From assembly GCF_000012485.1 (NCBI RefSeq), contig NC_007512.1, positions 1,945,501 through 2,009,500 of the forward strand: 64,000 nucleotides of DNA. The letters run 5' to 3'. The DNA is from Pelodictyon luteolum DSM 273 (GTDB lineage: Bacteria > Bacteroidota > Chlorobiia > Chlorobiales > Chlorobiaceae). The position numbers were made by a program, and so were the translations under genes. Numbering within the stretch: the stretch's first letter is position 1; each line of letters begins with the position of its first letter. Below the pieces are notes generated by a model that saw only the letters and a program-made list of their open reading frames with translations, had not been told where the DNA came from and did no database searches. Positions 7,270 to 49,930 of the stretch are shown here, piece after piece.

Positions 7270-8789
7270 CTGCGCCGCCGGGTCCTGCTGCGCAGCTTTG
7301 CAAAGAGGAGCCCGGATTCAGGGCGGAACATGAGGACGGAAAAGAGCAGGTAGAAACCGAGCAGTGCTCCTTTAAAGCCGGGCCCGACCCACGAGCCGTC
7401 CGGCAGGAGCGCAGAGGCCGATACACCGGCCCAGCCGGCCCCGATACCCCCGACAAGCAGAAGAGAGAGTTTTCCCCAGTCATGCTGCACCGGGTATGCA
7501 CGCAGGGAATAATAGGCCATCATCATGCACATCACCACCGTACCGGCAACGATGGCGTAAGCCGCTCCCTCCATCCCCGACAGAGGAATCAGCCACCAGC
7601 AGAAAAGACCGGTCACCGATGCACCCGCAAAGGTCACGACCGGCAGGTACCGGGTCGTCCCCGTGATGAGGATGCCGGCCGAAAGGTTGGTTGAAACCAT
7701 GTCGAACACATAGCTCAGAAAAATCCACGGCAGCACCGAGAGGCCTATCCAGTAGCCGGGAGGGAGCAGGTAAAGGGCCCCCCCGTAATGGTAGCGCACC
7801 AGATCCGGCACGAAAAAGGTTGCCGCAAGCGCCATGAACATGGTGAGCATGGTCGAAATGCTGAGGACGTGGCGGAACAGCCGTTTGGCATCGGGGTCGT
7901 TGGAGTGCTGGAGGAAAAAGGGCTGCCATGCGAACCTGAACACCTGGATGAGCAGCTGCAGCACCACCCCGAACGCCACTACCCTGCCGTAGATACCCAC
8001 CACGTCGGAAGCCTCGAGACCTTTGCCATAGATGCGCTCGATATCGCCGGAGGACATACGGATCAGGATGTTGCGGTCTATGAGGTGGATAAGGAGGCCG
8101 GCGATGCCTGTCGGCACGTAGGGAAGGCCGATACGAAGCATATCGCGAAGGTCGGCGAACGAGAACGCCGCCCGGAGGCGGCGGAGGACAGGAAAGAGCA
8201 GGATGAGGGTAAGGAGGGAACCAAGAATATTGGAGAGAAATGCACCGCCGAGGCCCGCCTGCAGGGGCCCGAGGAGGATGAAGGCACTGATGACAACGGC
8301 CACGACGCCCGCGATGCGCGCCACGGCGAATCGCACGGCCTGGCGCTTGAGGCGAAGCTCCGCAAAAGGAATCACGAGCAGGGTGTCGATCCAGAGAATC
8401 ACGGCCGCATAGCGGATGAAGGGCTGTTCGGCGGGCGATAGGCCGATCATGGAGGAAACCGATGGAGCAAGCAGAAAGAGTATCGCGGTAAAAAGGGTTG
8501 CGGTCGTAAAGAGTGAGATGAAGGCCGTCGAGAAGAGCGGGCGCTCATCCTTCTGCAGGCGGATCGCATCGGAAGCGGTCTTCAGGTACGAGGTTTCAAG
8601 ACCATAGGAAAAGATGACATTGGCGATGGCGATGTTCGCGTACACCAGCGTCTGGATACCGTTGTCGAAGGTCGAGAGCTGGTTGGCGTAGAGCGGGACG
8701 AGCAGATAGTTGAGGCTGCGGGCCAGTATCGTGCTCGTCCCGTAGATGAGGGTATCCTTGAAGAGAAGCTTGAGCTTTCCAAGCAGCAT
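7266..8789 (-). CDS. polysaccharide/oligosaccharide flippase family protein
   Basis: A hydrophobic protein of 507 residues with about 12-14 membrane segments, beginning with the [20 protein letters not shown] stretch typical of the MATE-like MOP superfamily (Wzx/MurJ/RfbX group). Such proteins flip lipid-linked sugars from the cytoplasmic to the periplasmic leaflet. No glycosyltransferase is adjacent; the surface-glycan genes sit at 54-64 kb. The gene ends in the sequence shared with the DUF4405 gene, so the two transcripts converge. Substrate unknown. Confidence 0.85.
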
Positions 8790-8809
8790 TGATCGATGCT
8801 CCTCTTGGC

Positions 8810-9163
8810 CTAGGCCTCTTCTGACATGCCGGACTTCCCGGCACCGTCCGCGCTGCCGTTTTCGGCTTCACGGCGGCGGCGCACAGCATCCGCATCAATC
8901 TGGAACCGGCCGTCTTTCTCCATGACGGGGATTTTCGAGATCACCTCGCGCAGGTGGGCCTGGGCCTCCTGCTGCTGCTGCTTGAGCTTTTCGAGTTCCG
9001 CGCCCGACAGGCCGACGGGGTTGTCGGGATCAATGAGTGAAGACTTGAAGGATTCAATTTCCAGCGACTGCTCCGTTTTCATGTACCCGACAAACTTCCT
9101 GAGCAGAAAGATGAAGAAAAAAAACACCAGCAGCGAAAACACCATGATGGGGATCCAGCTCAT
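8810..9163 (-). CDS. membrane-anchored protein with coiled-coil tendency, unknown
   Basis: A protein of 117 residues. The start [12 protein letters not shown] at 9163 gives one N-terminal membrane segment (about 4-24). The cytoplasmic or periplasmic remainder is charged and Q-rich ([16 protein letters not shown]) and probably helical. Earlier in-frame starts lack signal character. It lies 20 bases upstream of the flippase gene on the same strand, so the two are probably one operon. No family was recognised. Confidence 0.6.
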
Positions 9164-9276
9164 AATCGCAACAGTCTGTTTGGTGAAGAAAGCGGTAGTT
9201 ATTGCAATGTAGCCGATATTCCTTTTTATTGAAAGTACAACCAAGGTTCTTTTGCCGAACCCCGCATAACAACACC

Positions 9277-10257
9277 ATGAAGAGAGCTGCATCCCCCGAT
9301 TCCCTCACCGAAAAAGGCCGCCGGATCCTCCTGCAGGAAGCCGAGGCCATCCTCCGTATGGCCGAACGCCTCGACGGCAGTTTTTCAAGTGCAGTGAGCC
9401 TTCTTGCAGGCTGCAAGGGCAAGATCATCATATCCGGTATGGGCAAATCGGGCATCATCGGCCAGAAAATGGCGGCCACCATGTCCTCGACCGGCTCGAC
9501 TGCAGTCTTCCTCCACCCGGCCGAAGCCGCCCACGGCGACCTTGGCATCGTCCAGAAACACGATGTTGTCATCGGCCTCTCCAAAAGCGGTACCACCGAG
9601 GAGCTCAACTTCATCATTCCACCGCTCCGCCAGATCGGAGTGAAAATCATCGCCATGACCGGAAGCCGCCGTTCTTTTCTCGGTGAGAACGCCGACATCA
9701 CGCTCGATACCGGCATCGGCACCGAAGCCTGTCCCTACGACCTTGCTCCGACAACTTCCACAACCGCCATGCTCGCCATGGGAGACGCTCTGGCCATTGC
9801 GCTCATGGAGGAGAAACAGTTCACACAACGTGACTTCGCCCTCAGCCACCCCAAAGGCGCACTCGGTCGGCGCCTGACCGTCCGTGTCGGCGACATCATG
9901 GCAAAGGGAGATGCGGTTCCGGTGGTTCACGAAAGCTCGTCCCTTTCGGACCTGATCCTTGAAATGACTTCAAAGCGCTACGGGGTCAGTGCCGTTGTCG
10001 ATAGCGATGGGCGCCTGAAAGGGATCTTCACCGACGGTGACCTCCGCCGCCTTGTCCAGAAAGGCGAAGAGTTCCTCTCACGGACTGCAGGCGATGTCAT
10101 GACGGCCGGCCCGAAAACCGCCGGGCCTGACATGCTCGCAAAAGAGTGCCTCGACATCCTCGAAACCTGGCGCATAACGCAGCTCATGGTCTGCGACGCC
10201 CTGAACCGCCCTATAGGCCTCATCCACCTGCATGACCTGTTGACACTCGGTCTCTGA
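9277..10257 (+). CDS. kdsD: KpsF/GutQ-family arabinose-5-phosphate isomerase
   Basis: Converts ribulose 5-phosphate to arabinose 5-phosphate, the first step to Kdo for the lipopolysaccharide inner core. A protein of 326 residues with an N-terminal SIS domain (about 35-180; SGMGKSG at 53-59, a PAEAAHGD loop with H86, and GLSKSGTTEE) and two CBS domains (about 200-326). Order and length are standard for KdsD. The ATG at 9277 is used; an in-frame ATG at 9202 would add a non-homologous Cys-rich leader. Three 15-bp repeats and a terminator follow. No other Kdo gene is adjacent. Confidence 0.93.
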   Translation: MKRAASPDSLTEKGRRILLQEAEAILRMAERLDGSFSSAVSLLAGCKGKIIISGMGKSGIIGQKMAATMSSTGSTAVFLHPAEAAHGDLGIVQKHDVVIGLSKSGTTEELNFIIPPLRQIGVKIIAMTGSRRSFLGENADITLDTGIGTEACPYDLAPTTSTTAMLAMGDALAIALMEEKQFTQRDFALSHPKGALGRRLTVRVGDIMAKGDAVPVVHESSSLSDLILEMTSKRYGVSAVVDSDGRLKGIFTDGDLRRLVQKGEEFLSRTAGDVMTAGPKTAGPDMLAKECLDILETWRITQLMVCDALNRPIGLIHLHDLLTLGL

Positions 10258-10270
10258 GCCGCCACCCGGG

Positions 10271-10315
10271 AAGCAGTACCCCGGCAAGCAGCACCCGATA
10301 AAGCAACACCCATAA
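10271..10315 (+). repeat. three tandem 15-bp repeats after kdsD
   Basis: Units are AAGCAGTACCCCGGC, AAGCAGCACCCGATA and AAGCAACACCCATAA. They lie between the kdsD stop and the terminator. The kdsD frame stays open through them (21 codons) until a TGA at 10321. Confidence 0.6.
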
Positions 10316-10317
10316 AG

Positions 10318-10350
10318 CACTGAACCCCCGCCAAAGGCAGGGGTTCAGTG
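10318..10350. terminator. bidirectional intrinsic terminator between kdsD and sucD
   Basis: Perfect 11-bp stem CACTGAACCCC/GGGGTTCAGTG with an 11-base loop between two convergent genes. The T-tract is weak on both sides. Confidence 0.7.
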
Positions 10351-10386
10351 TTATAGTACCCGGCATGAGCGGGAAAAGAGCAACGC

Positions 10387-11286
<900 letters not shown>

Positions 11287-45685: not shown

Positions 45686-45827
45686 CTATACAACACCGGA
45701 ACTCAAAAAAAAAATCCCGGGGCGGAATGCCTGAACCGCCCATGAGCACACAGGAATGATCTCTTGGAAAGGGCGCCAAAAAGATTTATACTTTTTAAAA
45801 GTACGAATAAGACAAAAAGTTGTCGCC

Positions 45828-47156
45828 ATGGAAGAACATTTTCGCGATACCATACGACAGAAGATCGTCGATTCGCAGGCCAGGGCCTATCCCTCCTTCA
45901 CCCGGAGGGACACCCGCATACCGGCCGTTGCGGGAAAAGCCGTAGCGGTCATCGGCATGCGCAGGGCGGGCAAGACCACCCTGCTCTGGCAGCTCATGCA
46001 GGAGAGCGAGGAGAGCGGGACCGGCCGCGAGGAGATGCTCTACTTCAGCTTCGAAGACGAGCGCCTTGTGGGGATGCGGGCCACGGACCTCCAGCTGGTC
46101 GTCGAGGAGTACTACCGGCTGCACCCCCGGCTCAGGGACAACAGGAAGGTCCTCTTCTGTTTCGACGAAATCCAGGTGGTGGAGGGCTGGGACGCGTTCG
46201 CGAGGCGCATCCTCGACAGCGAATCCTGCAGGGTCTTCCTCTCCGGCTCCTCGGCGAAGATGCTCTCGCGGGAGGTCGGCACCAGCATGCGCGGCAGGGC
46301 GCTGGAAGCCACACTCTATCCGTTCAGCTTCAGGGAGTACCTGCGCCACCGGAGCCTCGAACCCCGGGAGGAGCCCGCACGGTGGACCAAGAGGGATCGC
46401 TCCGCCATCCGCCACGAGCTCGAAGAGTACCTCGTCTACGGAGGGTTCCCCGAAAGCCTGGGGGTGAGGGGGCGCGACCGGATGGAGCTCCTGAAGAGCT
46501 ACGTCGACGTCACGCTGCTGCGCGACGTCATCGAACGGCACGAGGTCTCCAACCCCACGGCGCTGCGCCGGATGGTCCGCCACCTGCTCGCCAACCCTGC
46601 GGGCTCCTTCAGCGTCAACCGCTTCCACAACGATCTGAAGTCGCAGGGCATCACCGCCGGAAGGGAGAGCGTCTACGACTATCTCGGCTTTCTCGAGGAC
46701 GCGTTCCTGCTCCGCACCGTCCCGATAAGCACCACCTCCGAACGCCGCAGGATGGTCAACCCGAGGAAGGCCTACCCGATAGACATGGGGCTGATAGGCC
46801 CCTACGACCGGTCGGGCAAAGCCAACACCGGCCATGCCCTGGAAACGTGCGTCTATCTGGAGCTCTGCAGAAGGGGATATGAGGTCGCCTACGTCAGGAC
46901 CGGCGAAGGGTACGAGGTCGATTTCCATGCGACGGACCCGGAGGGGAACGAGATGCTGATCCAGGTCTGTGCAGCAGCGGCCGACAGCAAGACTCTTGCA
47001 AGGGAGGTGCGCGCGCTCGGGAAAGCGGCAGAAGAACACCCCCGCGCCGAACTGCTGCTGATTACGATGGAGCCGCCGGCTGGAAAGGGGCTTTCAGGAA
47101 AGGTCAAAACCGTGCAGGCCGAGGAGTGGCTGCTGGAAGAGCTGCCCTGGAGATGA
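45828..47156 (+). CDS. DUF4143-type AAA ATPase
   Basis: A protein of 442 residues. N-terminal AAA domain with Walker A VIGMRRAGKTTLL (about 41-54), Walker B LFCFDEIQVVEGW and sensor LSGSSAKMLS. Then the DUF4143 domain with YLGFLEDAFLL and NPRKAYPIDMGL, and a C-terminal nuclease-like stretch (GYEVDFHATDPEGNEMLIQV) as seen in this family. Such ATPases are patchily distributed accessory genes of unknown role. The ATG at 45828 is chosen; 45756 would add 24 odd residues. It converges with the secreted-protein gene. Confidence 0.88.
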   Translation: MEEHFRDTIRQKIVDSQARAYPSFTRRDTRIPAVAGKAVAVIGMRRAGKTTLLWQLMQESEESGTGREEMLYFSFEDERLVGMRATDLQLVVEEYYRLHPRLRDNRKVLFCFDEIQVVEGWDAFARRILDSESCRVFLSGSSAKMLSREVGTSMRGRALEATLYPFSFREYLRHRSLEPREEPARWTKRDRSAIRHELEEYLVYGGFPESLGVRGRDRMELLKSYVDVTLLRDVIERHEVSNPTALRRMVRHLLANPAGSFSVNRFHNDLKSQGITAGRESVYDYLGFLEDAFLLRTVPISTTSERRRMVNPRKAYPIDMGLIGPYDRSGKANTGHALETCVYLELCRRGYEVAYVRTGEGYEVDFHATDPEGNEMLIQVCAAAADSKTLAREVRALGKAAEEHPRAELLLITMEPPAGKGLSGKVKTVQAEEWLLEELPWR

Positions 47157-47163
47157 CGGCAGC

Positions 47164-48021
47164 CTAGCGCACCCTCATCCGAACATCAAACGGATCGCCG
47201 TTGAAACAGGTCAGCACACCCCCGACCGTCTGGACGACGGTCGAGCAGTTGGCGACGTTGAAGGAAAGATCGAGCCCCTGCGTGGCGCGAGTCACCGCGG
47301 CGTCAAGCTCGAACACGACGACCAGGCGGGCAACGTCGCCGAGACTGTTTTCGGCGATCCCGGAAGCAGGGATCTTGCCGCTTTCAGCCACAAGGAAGCG
47401 GCCTCCGGAGGAGTAGGACTGGGCATTGGACTCGAGGGAATTGAAATAGAAGGTCGTATAGCCCCAGTCGCCTAAGCTTGTGGCTATCTGGGCCGCCGTT
47501 TTCGGATCGCCCTTGTACCGGTATACCGTGGAGCCTGAACGGGAGTAACAGAGGGTGTTTACCGGCAGCGTCACCTGATCGCCGCCGCCGGGGTTATTGG
47601 TTGTATGCGCCCGAGAGAACTTCGCATGCGCCTTGACCTCCACCCTGGGAGCCAGGATCACGTAGCCGTGCGTGTATGTCCAGTCAGGCGGCCGCTCGAG
47701 CAGCGACGAGAGGAGTGAGGACTCGCCGTTCTTCACCTCCAGGAGCAGCGGCTCGGAGCCGCTCTCGAAAAGCTTTACTGCCGTATCGCCCGCATCGAAA
47801 GCCACGGAGGTAGTTGGCGACACCGGCGGCTCCGTGCAGAACCCAACCTCATAGATGAACACCCGGTAGCTGTCGGGCTCGATATAGCAGTTCCTCGCTG
47901 AAGTGATCTGGCCGCTGACGGGGTCGATCTGGCAGGCTTCGTCAGCTAATATAATCCCAGTAAAAAAGATGAACAAAAACGCCACTTGTAGTGGCAATAA
48001 TAAACGCTTCTGCTTATTCAC
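47164..48021 (-). CDS. secreted protein, unknown family
   Basis: A protein of 285 residues with a signal peptide (MNKQKRLLLPLQVAFLFIFF, cut near ILA-DEA). The mature part starts with ACQIDPVSGQITSARNCYIEPDSYRVFIYEVGFC, is rich in S, T, G and V and predicted mostly beta-stranded, and ends LDLSFNVANCSTVVQTVGG then a C-terminal FNGDPFDVRMRVR. Six Cys could form disulfides. I recognised no family. A fragment of a paralogue is next to it at 48098. Possibly an adhesin or surface subunit (inference from composition only). Confidence 0.72.
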   Translation of the reverse strand: MNKQKRLLLPLQVAFLFIFFTGIILADEACQIDPVSGQITSARNCYIEPDSYRVFIYEVGFCTEPPVSPTTSVAFDAGDTAVKLFESGSEPLLLEVKNGESSLLSSLLERPPDWTYTHGYVILAPRVEVKAHAKFSRAHTTNNPGGGDQVTLPVNTLCYSRSGSTVYRYKGDPKTAAQIATSLGDWGYTTFYFNSLESNAQSYSSGGRFLVAESGKIPASGIAENSLGDVARLVVVFELDAAVTRATQGLDLSFNVANCSTVVQTVGGVLTCFNGDPFDVRMRVR

Positions 48022-48044
48022 CGGCGAGATCCTCCGTCAGGATA

Positions 48045-48074
48045 GAAAAAAGCTCGGTCATATGGAGACCGAGC
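48045..48074 (-). terminator. intrinsic terminator after the paralogue fragment
   Basis: Minus strand GCTCGGTC/GACCGAGC stem with a 7-base loop followed by TTTTTTC. It separates the 48098 fragment from the 47164 gene. Confidence 0.75.
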
Positions 48075-48097
48075 CCTTGTTGCCTTGAAAATAAAAA

Positions 48098-48337
48098 TCA
48101 CCGAACCTGAAGATTAATATCAAAAGGCCCCCCACCCAGCCCGTTAAGCTGTCCCTCTGAAGGCTGTTTGACGGTACAGCCATGGCCAACGTTAAAAGAA
48201 AGACTTGCAGATGTCGTGGCCGGAGTAATGAACACGCTTCCAAGGTCAATCATCGCAAACAGCTTCTCAATTGTCCGCCATCTGATCATTTTGAACATCT
48301 TTTCCAAGGCGATATTGACCGTCAACCAAGTACGCAT
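48098..48337 (-). pseudogene. 3' fragment of a paralogue of the 47164 secreted protein
   Basis: The frame of 79 residues has no signal peptide. From residue 24 on it aligns with the C terminus of the 47164 product: KLFAMIDLGSVF...SASLSFNVGHGCTV against RLVVVFELDAAV...LDLSFNVANCSTV, and GGGPFDINLQVR against FNGDPFDVRMRVR. The conserved part covers only the last 55 residues, so about 230 residues are missing and it is probably a remnant. Local GC is lower (about 42% in 48241-48300) than in neighbours. Confidence 0.6.
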
Positions 48338-48439
48338 GAACTGTCAAACCTGCTGTTGATGTGCCTTGAAATTCGTAAGTCTGGGTCTGTCCGAATGTAT
48401 TCATATTCTCAACATATATTTTTCCCATCCGAGGCGCGG

Positions 48440-49540
48440 ATGCTGATGGAAAACCTCACCCAGAGCCGCGGGACAGTCAAAAAAGCCGTGGGGCGCAAGG
48501 CTGTCGAAGAACGATTGGTAAATATTTATGAATCAAGGGGCCCCGAGGCTCTCAACCGCATCAGGGATGAGGCCCGCAACATCTCAGCCGCTCTGGGTTT
48601 CGAGAAGGAATGCGGTATGCTGCATGACCTCATCGGGAGCATTCCAGGAACAAAAAGTGCCCGACTTTCGACAGTAGCGGGTCGCGCTCTGGCAAGAGGG
48701 ATACCTCTTGATGCCGCTCGTCTGGAACTGTTCGAAACATTGGCAGCTGCATTGCGGACAACGCCCCTCATGCAGAAACACACTCCGGCCACAACGGAAA
48801 CAGCTCACTTCAATTTTGCTTTTCTGGAGTCCTATTTCAGCAACTTCATCGAAGGGACGGAATTTGATATCTCTGAGGCCCGCCAAATTGTGCTTGAAGG
48901 CAAAATCATCGACCAACGCCCGAAAGACTCGCACGATATCCTTGGAGTATTCTGGCAGGCCATCGATCCGGGATGGTCACTTCAATCGACAGCACCGGGA
49001 GAAGCCGTCCTGCAGCAATTGCGACAGCGCCACCGTACACTGATGAAAGAACGGCCGGAAACGGCACCCGGTGACTTCAAGGACCGCGAAAATGGTGCCG
49101 GGAACACCACATTCGTCTTGCCGAAGAATGTCCAGGGAACACTGATAGAGGGAAGCAAACTCCTGCCTTCGGTGCCGCCCGGCATGGCAAGGGCGCTTCT
49201 TGCAATGTTCATCGTCTCGGAAGTACATCCGTTCATCGACGGAAACGGCCGGCTGGCACGCCTGGTCATGAACGCAGAGTTGTCGCTCATGCAGGCATGC
49301 AGAGTGATTGTACCAACACTCTTCAGAGAAGAGTATCTTGACTGCCTCCGTGTCCTCTCGCAGCGGGGACAACCCGGACCGTTCATTGCCGCCATGCAGA
49401 AAATCCAGCAATGGTCCGCCGCGTTCGACTACAATGATCTGGACAGGGTGATCGGCCAGATGCAGGCATGCAATGCATTCGAAAAATCCACCAGACAGTA
49501 CCAGTTGCTGAGCCCCCCCGAAAGTGGGCCTGAGAAATAA
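48440..49540 (+). CDS. Fic domain protein (class II, N-terminal inhibitory helix)
   Basis: Fic proteins transfer AMP or other nucleotides to Ser/Thr/Tyr of target proteins. A protein of 366 residues. The catalytic loop is HPFIDGNGRLAR with His263, Asp267, Asn269, Arg271 and Arg274 all present. An inhibitory motif (S/T)xxxE(G/N) is visible upstream as SNFIEG (Ser134-Glu138-Gly139), which blocks ATP binding in related proteins. The ATG at 48440 has a GAGG ribosome site; the frame also runs upstream to 48182 with no further homology. Intact and probably autoinhibited. Neighbours are unrelated, so no obvious target or antitoxin. Confidence 0.88.
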   Translation: MLMENLTQSRGTVKKAVGRKAVEERLVNIYESRGPEALNRIRDEARNISAALGFEKECGMLHDLIGSIPGTKSARLSTVAGRALARGIPLDAARLELFETLAAALRTTPLMQKHTPATTETAHFNFAFLESYFSNFIEGTEFDISEARQIVLEGKIIDQRPKDSHDILGVFWQAIDPGWSLQSTAPGEAVLQQLRQRHRTLMKERPETAPGDFKDRENGAGNTTFVLPKNVQGTLIEGSKLLPSVPPGMARALLAMFIVSEVHPFIDGNGRLARLVMNAELSLMQACRVIVPTLFREEYLDCLRVLSQRGQPGPFIAAMQKIQQWSAAFDYNDLDRVIGQMQACNAFEKSTRQYQLLSPPESGPEK

Positions 49541-49690
49541 ACACCGCCCGCCAGTGAACAAACCCAGCGCAGCCGCCATACATGAGGAAAAACGCTGAAA
49601 CCAACAGATGAAAGGGCTCAGCACTCGACTGATAGAGTCTAACCTGCCGTCCAGTTCCAAACGGCAAGGATGACGCCGCATCTCCAACCC

Positions 49691-49930
49691 CTAATCCCGA
49701 AGGCGGGAAAGAATGTCAACTGCGGTAACGCGGTGTTTGAAGGCGAAGGCGCCGTCAATATGGATGACGGGGATGCTGAAGCGGTAGCGGGACTCCAGAA
49801 CCGGGTCCTCCGTTATATCTTTTTTTTCGATGGTGAACGGCACCTCTTTCTGCACAGAGAGCAGTACTTCCATCGCCTCAACGCAGAGGCAGCATTCAGG
49901 CCTGCCGTAGATGGTTACCGTTCGGGGCAT
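49691..49930 (-). CDS. glutaredoxin family protein
   Basis: A small thioredoxin-fold protein of 79 residues: MPRTVTIYGRPECCLCVEAM with redox motif CCLC (Cys13-x-x-Cys16), a cis-Pro loop FSIPVIHIDG and a shortened C terminus (HRVTAVDILSRL). It belongs to the DUF836/glutaredoxin-like group rather than the classical CPYC glutaredoxins. Start 13 bases after the hisS stop, so the two share a transcript. Confidence 0.85.
   Translation of the reverse strand: MPRTVTIYGRPECCLCVEAMEVLLSVQKEVPFTIEKKDITEDPVLESRYRFSIPVIHIDGAFAFKHRVTAVDILSRLRD

What the first reader, a model, noticed from the sequence alone, without database searches (positions are those of the whole stretch)
47164..48337. Secreted orphan protein with a fragmentary paralogue and terminator in between
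The 47164 product has a signal peptide and no family I recognise. The 48098 frame carries only a match to its last 55 residues (SFNV...C-T-V and G-x-PFD-x-x-x-x-VR), no signal peptide, and its own terminator. This looks like a tandem duplication decaying, or a cassette of 3' ends that could be exchanged with the full gene. The next gene is Fic, an accessory type.
Basis: partly seen in the sequence, partly recalled or inferred. Interest (0 to 1): 0.5.

Follow-up and report, generated by a model that had tools for sequence, protein, structure and literature searches.

The report
Deletion scar in surface-secretion operon
In a green sulfur bacterium a deletion appears to have removed an outer-membrane barrel gene and most of one secreted partner protein, leaving a broken stub beside an intact, mosaic partner gene; a sister strain still has the barrel, which suggests a two-part export system like one known from Salmonella.

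Summary
The similarity is real. Both genes lie on the minus strand: B (47164-48021, 285 aa, signal peptide-like start) and a 79-codon frame (48098-48337) whose last 57-58 residues match B's end (score 88; maximum of 2000 shuffles 49). The stub is best read as a remnant, not an independent gene. In a sister genome (Pelodictyon luteolum CIII; fic-side flank 98.9% identical) the same place holds full-length fic, an inverse-autotransporter beta-barrel gene (IAT_beta, E 7e-35), a longer paralogue A (itself frameshifted there), then B. The window lacks the barrel gene, the 5' part of its A-like gene and about 126 codons of fic; 19 of 98 class genomes have fic matches spanning residue 1 to at least 492 of 500, which places the loss on the window's side. 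In the three other loci with this orphan family, the first orphan lies 13-20 bp behind another gene: an IAT_beta barrel in two, an unrelated 553-aa protein in the third. The closest known design is ZirT/ZirS of Salmonella. B is mosaic between the strains: a central tract with dS about 1.0-1.3 between ends that are 97-100% identical, so exchange hit the middle, not the 3' end. ZirTS-like export is inferred; the fold is unresolved.

The parts
47164..48021 (-). Gene B: 285-aa secreted-type protein of a rare Chlorobium family, no Pfam/NCBIfam match; last gene of the former barrel/partner operon
   Evidence: CIII counterpart 79% identical over the protein
47279..47671 (-). Core of the exchanged tract of B: 108 of 393 sites differ from CIII against 18 of 395 in the rest of the mature gene
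   Evidence: 0 of 5000 permutations; blockwise dS; identity profile
47952..48415 (-). 464 bp without nucleotide match to the 2770 bp at the same place in CIII: B signal-peptide and ribosome-site region, terminator, stub
48046..48078 (-). Rho-independent terminator-like hairpin with T run, between stub and B, 26 nt upstream of B's start codon
48098..48337 (-). 79-codon frame: the 3' part of the truncated A-like paralogue
48267..48428 (-). 53-codon frame that continues the paralogue's homology upstream in another phase (frameshifted remnant; moderate evidence)
48416..48416 (.). Junction: the last base that aligns with CIII fic (L007 position 2237, about fic codon 126); beyond it the window reads into the A-like remnant
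48440..49540 (+). fic without its first ~126-134 codons (ATG here equals residue 135 of the 500-aa CIII Fic); Fic core motif HPFIDGNGRLAR is still present
45756..47156 (+). AAA_14/DUF4143 ATPase gene, the other border of the accessory cluster

Best explanation
The window carries the scar of a deletion in an accessory surface-protein cluster. The fuller form, seen in the sister genome CIII, reads fic (one way) and, the other way, an inverse-autotransporter beta-barrel gene followed directly by one or two genes for Sec-secreted partner proteins (A, B). In the window the shared 5' side is gone: the start of fic, the barrel gene and the 5' part of the A-like gene. The 79-codon frame is what is left of that A-like gene, and it has since been frameshifted. 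B remains as an intact reading frame. I infer that the intact system works like ZirT/ZirS: the barrel sits in the outer membrane and exports or displays the partner protein, which reaches the periplasm by its own signal peptide. In the window B has lost its local barrel and probably its promoter; it may be silent, or rely on the second barrel gene elsewhere in the genome. Shown: homology of the stub, truncation of fic, gene order in other genomes, mosaic B. Inferred: order of events, export by the barrel, surface exposure, present silence of B.
For: Sister-genome gene order; IAT_beta E 6.9e-35 in CIII and 4.3e-36 in G043. Junction inside fic at window 48416 with 98.9% identity over the adjoining 2237 bp. 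19 of 98 class genomes, CIII included, have fic matches from residue 1 to >= 492 of 500, the window does not. The first orphan lies 13, 20 and 18 bp behind its upstream gene in CIII, G043 and G069. Stub homology significant. Site without B, IAT_beta and fic in 13 of 13 relatives fetched, AAA gene present in 1 of the 13. Precedent: ZirT, an Int/Inv-type barrel, exports ZirS, a 276-aa Sec-dependent exoprotein (PMC2270342: abstract, outline and passages seen).
Against: The stub has no nucleotide match to CIII's A, so the exact uncut parent is not in hand, and an import with an illegitimate left end would leave the same scar. In G069 the upstream 553-aa protein has no detectable IAT_beta, so the barrel link rests on two loci. 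The CIII barrels of this operon have almost no passenger (327 aa), unlike ZirT. A in CIII is itself frameshifted, and CIII is a metagenome assembly. fic is fragmentary in some other genomes too, though several of those lie at contig ends. No fold or sequence link of the orphan to ZirS or any solved structure.
Confidence: 0.62

Rival explanations
1. The 79-aa frame is a functional independent small protein.
For: It has an open frame, a start codon and a terminator behind it.
Against: It starts in mid-domain; homology continues upstream in another frame (moderate); no ribosome-site or promoter evidence; no free-standing relative was seen in 98 class genomes, where the only other short match is the broken A tail of CIII.
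Confidence: 0.05
2. Not a simple deletion: incoming DNA from a third strain (A-like tail, terminator, signal-peptide region of B) replaced the region, joined to fic without homology on the left and by homology inside B on the right.
For: The 464 bp have no nucleotide match to CIII while both sides are 97-100% identical near the edges; G+C of the stub is 0.46 against 0.58 for the window; B has a second exchanged tract.
Against: A lower G+C is also seen in CIII's own A (0.45), so it marks the gene, not the import. The outcome (barrel lost, fic and A-like gene cut) is the same.
Confidence: 0.35
3. The 3' stub is a donor cassette for exchange with B.
For: B does show exchange.
Against: The exchanged tract is central; B's last ~33 codons have no synonymous difference from CIII, and the stub's own 3' end differs from B's (about 40% identity).
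Confidence: 0.03
4. The mosaic of B is an artefact of a strain mixture in the CIII metagenome assembly.
For: CIII is a MAG (record title); A there carries a frameshift at a run of six G.
Against: Both alleles are intact frames with low dN/dS (0.13-0.20) in the divergent tract, so a divergent allele exists in either case; the flanks show no sign of mixture. The stub and fic truncation do not depend on it.
Confidence: 0.2
5. The barrel and the orphan share an operon but not a secretion route: the orphan is a periplasmic or surface protein that leaves by another path.
For: No contact or export data; barrel types differ between loci.
Against: The same orphan family sits directly behind the barrel-type gene in 3 of 3 loci other than the window.
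Confidence: 0.35

Closest known systems
ZirT/ZirS (ZirTSU) of Salmonella, and the sinH-sinI / iatB loci (PMC2270342; PMC6714894; passages seen)
   Same: Gene for an inverse-autotransporter barrel followed by a gene for a Sec-type secreted protein without barrel (ZirS 276 aa, B 285 aa); horizontally acquired location.
   Different: The Chlorobium barrels are 323-327 aa and end soon after the barrel, without Ig passenger; the partner has no sequence match to any solved structure; one or two partners in tandem; different phylum; export untested.
Inverse autotransporters, type Ve (intimin/invasin)
   Same: IAT_beta domain over most of its profile in CIII (21-279 of 279) and G043 (19-279 of 279).
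   Different: No passenger in the same chain; the window's own operon has lost the barrel gene.
Two-partner secretion, type Vb
   Same: Transporter and secreted protein are separate genes, side by side.
   Different: Barrel is IAT_beta by Pfam; no Omp85/POTRA family was reported for it.
Recombining surface-protein genes of bacteria in general
   Same: Block mosaic between close strains with purifying selection inside the blocks.
   Different: Only two alleles seen; no silent cassette store found in the own genome (two places only).

Membership tests
ZirTS-type system | Outer-membrane barrel of the Int/Inv (IAT_beta) type encoded beside the partner | tested here: met
   CIII and G043 operons only; absent beside B in the window; not detectable in G069
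ZirTS-type system | Partner protein with Sec signal, no barrel of its own | tested here: inconclusive
   Hydrophobic N termini by eye in B, CIII A and B, G043, G069; no signal-peptide predictor was run
ZirTS-type system | Barrel-dependent export of the partner | not testable with these tools
   needs a gene removal and secretion assay
ZirTS-type system | Sequence or fold relation of the partner to ZirS | tested here: inconclusive
   No PDB sequence match at E <= 10; models of pLDDT 51, no match with weight; ZirS itself was not compared
Inverse autotransporter (type Ve) | IAT_beta barrel domain | tested here: met
   CIII E 6.9e-35, G043 E 4.3e-36
Inverse autotransporter (type Ve) | C-terminal passenger in the same polypeptide | tested here: not met
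   Proteins end about 18 residues after the profile match (309 of 327, 304 of 323); so they work at most like a Ve barrel
Two-partner secretion (type Vb) | Omp85-type transporter with POTRA domains | tested here: not met
   Pfam scan reports IAT_beta only
Independent functional small gene (79 aa) | Conservation as a free-standing frame in relatives | tested here: not met
   No free-standing homologue in 98 class genomes; the only other short match is the broken A tail of CIII

The most novel reading that the evidence does not exclude
A split type V system in green sulfur bacteria: a passenger-less inverse-autotransporter barrel exports separately encoded, recombining partner proteins, and barrels of different descent converge on the same C-terminal octapeptide (FNVTVTGF in CIII, FNVSVSGF in G069), which could be the dock for the partner. 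Of 174720 octamer pairs between those two proteins this one alone has 6 identities, and it lies at the very C terminus of both; the barrels at the other locus end differently. Against: the choice was made after seeing it, and the G043 tail (FIVLADGNY) fits poorly.
Probability: 0.25. Interest if true: 0.65.

Novelty: new variant of a known kind. Interest (0 to 1): 0.4.

Why it matters
The stub itself is an ordinary pseudogene. The operon it points to would, if export holds, extend the ZirTS idea (a barrel that exports a separate protein) from enterobacteria to green sulfur bacteria and reduce it to a barrel without passenger. The mosaic partner gene would mark it as a surface protein that is being reshuffled between strains, in a group where little is known of cell-contact proteins. 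Two strains that differ by presence or loss of the barrel beside a surviving partner make the dependence testable.

Tried and rejected
Searches that gave nothing: Pfam and NCBIfam for B and the stub at E <= 1; viral contigs with the family profile (10 stretches, none confirmed); plasmids and phages by tblastn at E <= 0.01; PDB by profile at E <= 10. The genome-contig scan found one relative only, CIII; it uses short exact peptide patterns and reaches close relatives only. Phylum sample: 4 of 394 genomes, all in the window's genus.

Structure: two predictions, mean pLDDT 51.4 and 51.3, beta-rich ends and a low-confidence middle. Foldseek best E 0.39 (first model only); VIA-align best Z 2.7 and 3.7. 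I take no fold from this. The rows at the top were arginine methyltransferases; I do not believe them.

Rejected: that the G069 upstream protein is an IAT barrel (hhalign probability 0.5%); that A in CIII and the stub are the same allele (no nucleotide match); that B's 3' end was exchanged. The promoter scan found no sigma-70-like site in 46900-49700 (shuffle mean 1.2), which says little for this phylum.

Literature: searches. One search listed 3 papers with 'inverse autotransporter' and 'Chlorobi'; I saw passages of one (PMC6604945), where Chlorobi is named for TamL. None of the 15 rows listed of 22 holds both 'inverse autotransporter' and 'Chlorobium'. One search (Chlorobium luteolum, CIII, Banyoles) found 0. 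I found no report of this locus in those searches; subscription journals are mostly not held.

Full report
WHERE. The window lies in a single-contig genome of 2,364,842 bases. The size is that of Chlorobium luteolum DSM 273 as I recall it; the nearest named record is Pelodictyon luteolum CIII, a metagenome-assembled genome. The two genes of the finding are on the minus strand.

OBSERVATION. B (47164-48021) is a 285-aa protein with a hydrophobic start and no Pfam or NCBIfam match. The 79-aa frame (48098-48337) matches its last 57-58 residues: score 88, maximum of 2000 shuffles 49; it also matches CIII B (95), CIII A tail (85), the G043 orphan (82) and the G069 orphan (92), each with 0 of 2000 shuffles reaching the score. 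Profiles built without the stub find it at E 1.7e-7 and 2.5e-8. The hairpin between them is strong (z -4.3) and ends 26 nt before B's start codon. The frame 48267-48428 continues the homology in another phase: 9 of 2000 and 7 of 2000 shuffles reach the score against CIII A and G043, but 53 of 2000 against G069 and 757 of 2000 against B. I therefore call the frameshift likely, not proven.

THE SISTER LOCUS. In CIII (L007) the order is fic (500 aa, other strand), a 327-aa IAT_beta protein (E 6.9e-35, profile positions 21-279 of 279), paralogue A (an open frame of 182 codons, its tail in another frame), B (302 aa), AAA/DUF4143. BLASTN pairs window 50652-48416 with L007 1-2237 (98.9%) and window 47951-44000 with L007 5008-8963 (95.9%); 464 bp in the window face 2770 bp in CIII with no match between them at E 1e-3. 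The left edge falls at about codon 126 of fic. Its ATG at 48440 equals residue 135 of the CIII protein.

POLARITY. With the 500-aa Fic as query, 19 of 98 class genomes (CIII included) have a match from residue 1 to at least 492; the window's match starts inside. Some other genomes have partial copies as well, several at contig ends, so fic decays or is cut elsewhere too. The window keeps the Fic core motif HPFIDGNGRLAR (motif recalled).

THE CLUSTER IS ACCESSORY. I fetched the hisS-rimP interval of 13 relatives (of the 30 genomes with a rimP match). In 13 of 13, B, IAT_beta and this fic are absent there; the AAA gene is present in 1 of 13, G023. G043 has its fic and its barrel/orphan pair on different contigs.

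THE ORPHAN FAMILY. 4 of 98 class genomes and 4 of 394 sampled phylum genomes, all in the same genus, carry it; none was found in plasmids, phages or viral contigs. In the three loci other than the window the first orphan follows another gene by 13 (CIII), 20 (G043) and 18 bp (G069; 48 from a second possible start). The upstream gene is IAT_beta in CIII and G043. In G069 it is a 553-aa protein with a putative Ig domain (He_PIG, E 7.9e-11) and no detectable IAT_beta. IAT_beta is itself rare: 4 of 98 genomes, 5 places. The three of them outside this operon, one in the window's own genome (G000:C1:654418-655164), have no orphan match beside them.

MOSAIC B. Against CIII the mature gene shows 97-100% identity from 47951 to 47772, 60-85% from 47771 to about 47238, then 98% to its end and on into the AAA gene. 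Blockwise dS is 0, 0.18, 1.05, 1.12, 1.33, 0, with dN/dS 0.13-0.20 in the three divergent blocks; AAA, Fic and RimP have dS 0.009-0.021. The densest segment, 47671-47279, holds 108 of 393 differing sites against 18 of 395 outside, and 0 of 5000 permutations reach it. So the middle of B was exchanged in one of the two lineages; I cannot say which. The signal-peptide region differs as well.

HOW IT LIKELY WORKS. A barrel gene with one or two directly following genes for Sec-type secreted proteins is the layout of zirTS. There ZirT, an outer-membrane barrel of the intimin/invasin kind, exports ZirS (276 aa) after Sec-dependent passage to the periplasm (PMC2270342: abstract, outline, passages). 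PMC6714894 (passages) describes zirTSU, sinH-sinI and iatB as analogous. I infer the same division of labour in Chlorobium. Nothing here tests export. The Chlorobium barrels end about 18 residues after the IAT_beta match, so they lack the passenger that defines type Ve; by membership they are IAT_beta barrels, not complete inverse autotransporters.

WHAT IS LEFT IN THE WINDOW. The cut removed the shared 5' side of fic and of the operon. B has a ribosome site but the terminator stands 26 nt before its start, and no sigma-70-like site was found (weak evidence). B may be silent or use the distant barrel. Low dN/dS speaks for past constraint, not for present use.

LIMITS. The uncut parent of the stub is not in hand; CIII is a metagenome assembly; signal peptides were judged by eye; both structure models are poor and no fold match carries weight.

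Noticed in passing
L017:3904-4821(-) (own genome C1:654418-655164): A second, stand-alone IAT_beta barrel gene in the window's genome, beside a long ORF that I take for aconitase (recalled, not searched); counterparts in CIII and G023, none with an orphan partner.
   Followed up: partly
L007:4590-4620: Paralogue A of CIII changes frame at a run of six G; a mutation, slippage or an assembly error.
   Followed up: partly
L007:4045-4052 and L029:3066-3089: Two barrel-side proteins of different descent end in nearly the same octapeptide (FNVTVTGF, FNVSVSGF), both directly before an orphan gene.
   Followed up: partly
L020:3022-5034 and 8710-10521: Next to the G043 barrel/orphan pair lie two large ORFs that look like radical-SAM/SPASM proteins and Nif11-like leader peptides (by eye).
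   Followed up: no
window 48440-49540: The truncated Fic still has its core motif and an S-x-x-x-E-G motif (SNFIEG) of the kind known as inhibitory (recalled); its promoter side is lost.
   Followed up: partly
window 45756-47156: AAA_14/DUF4143 ATPase gene is nearly identical in CIII (98.9%) and present alone at this site in G023.
   Followed up: partly
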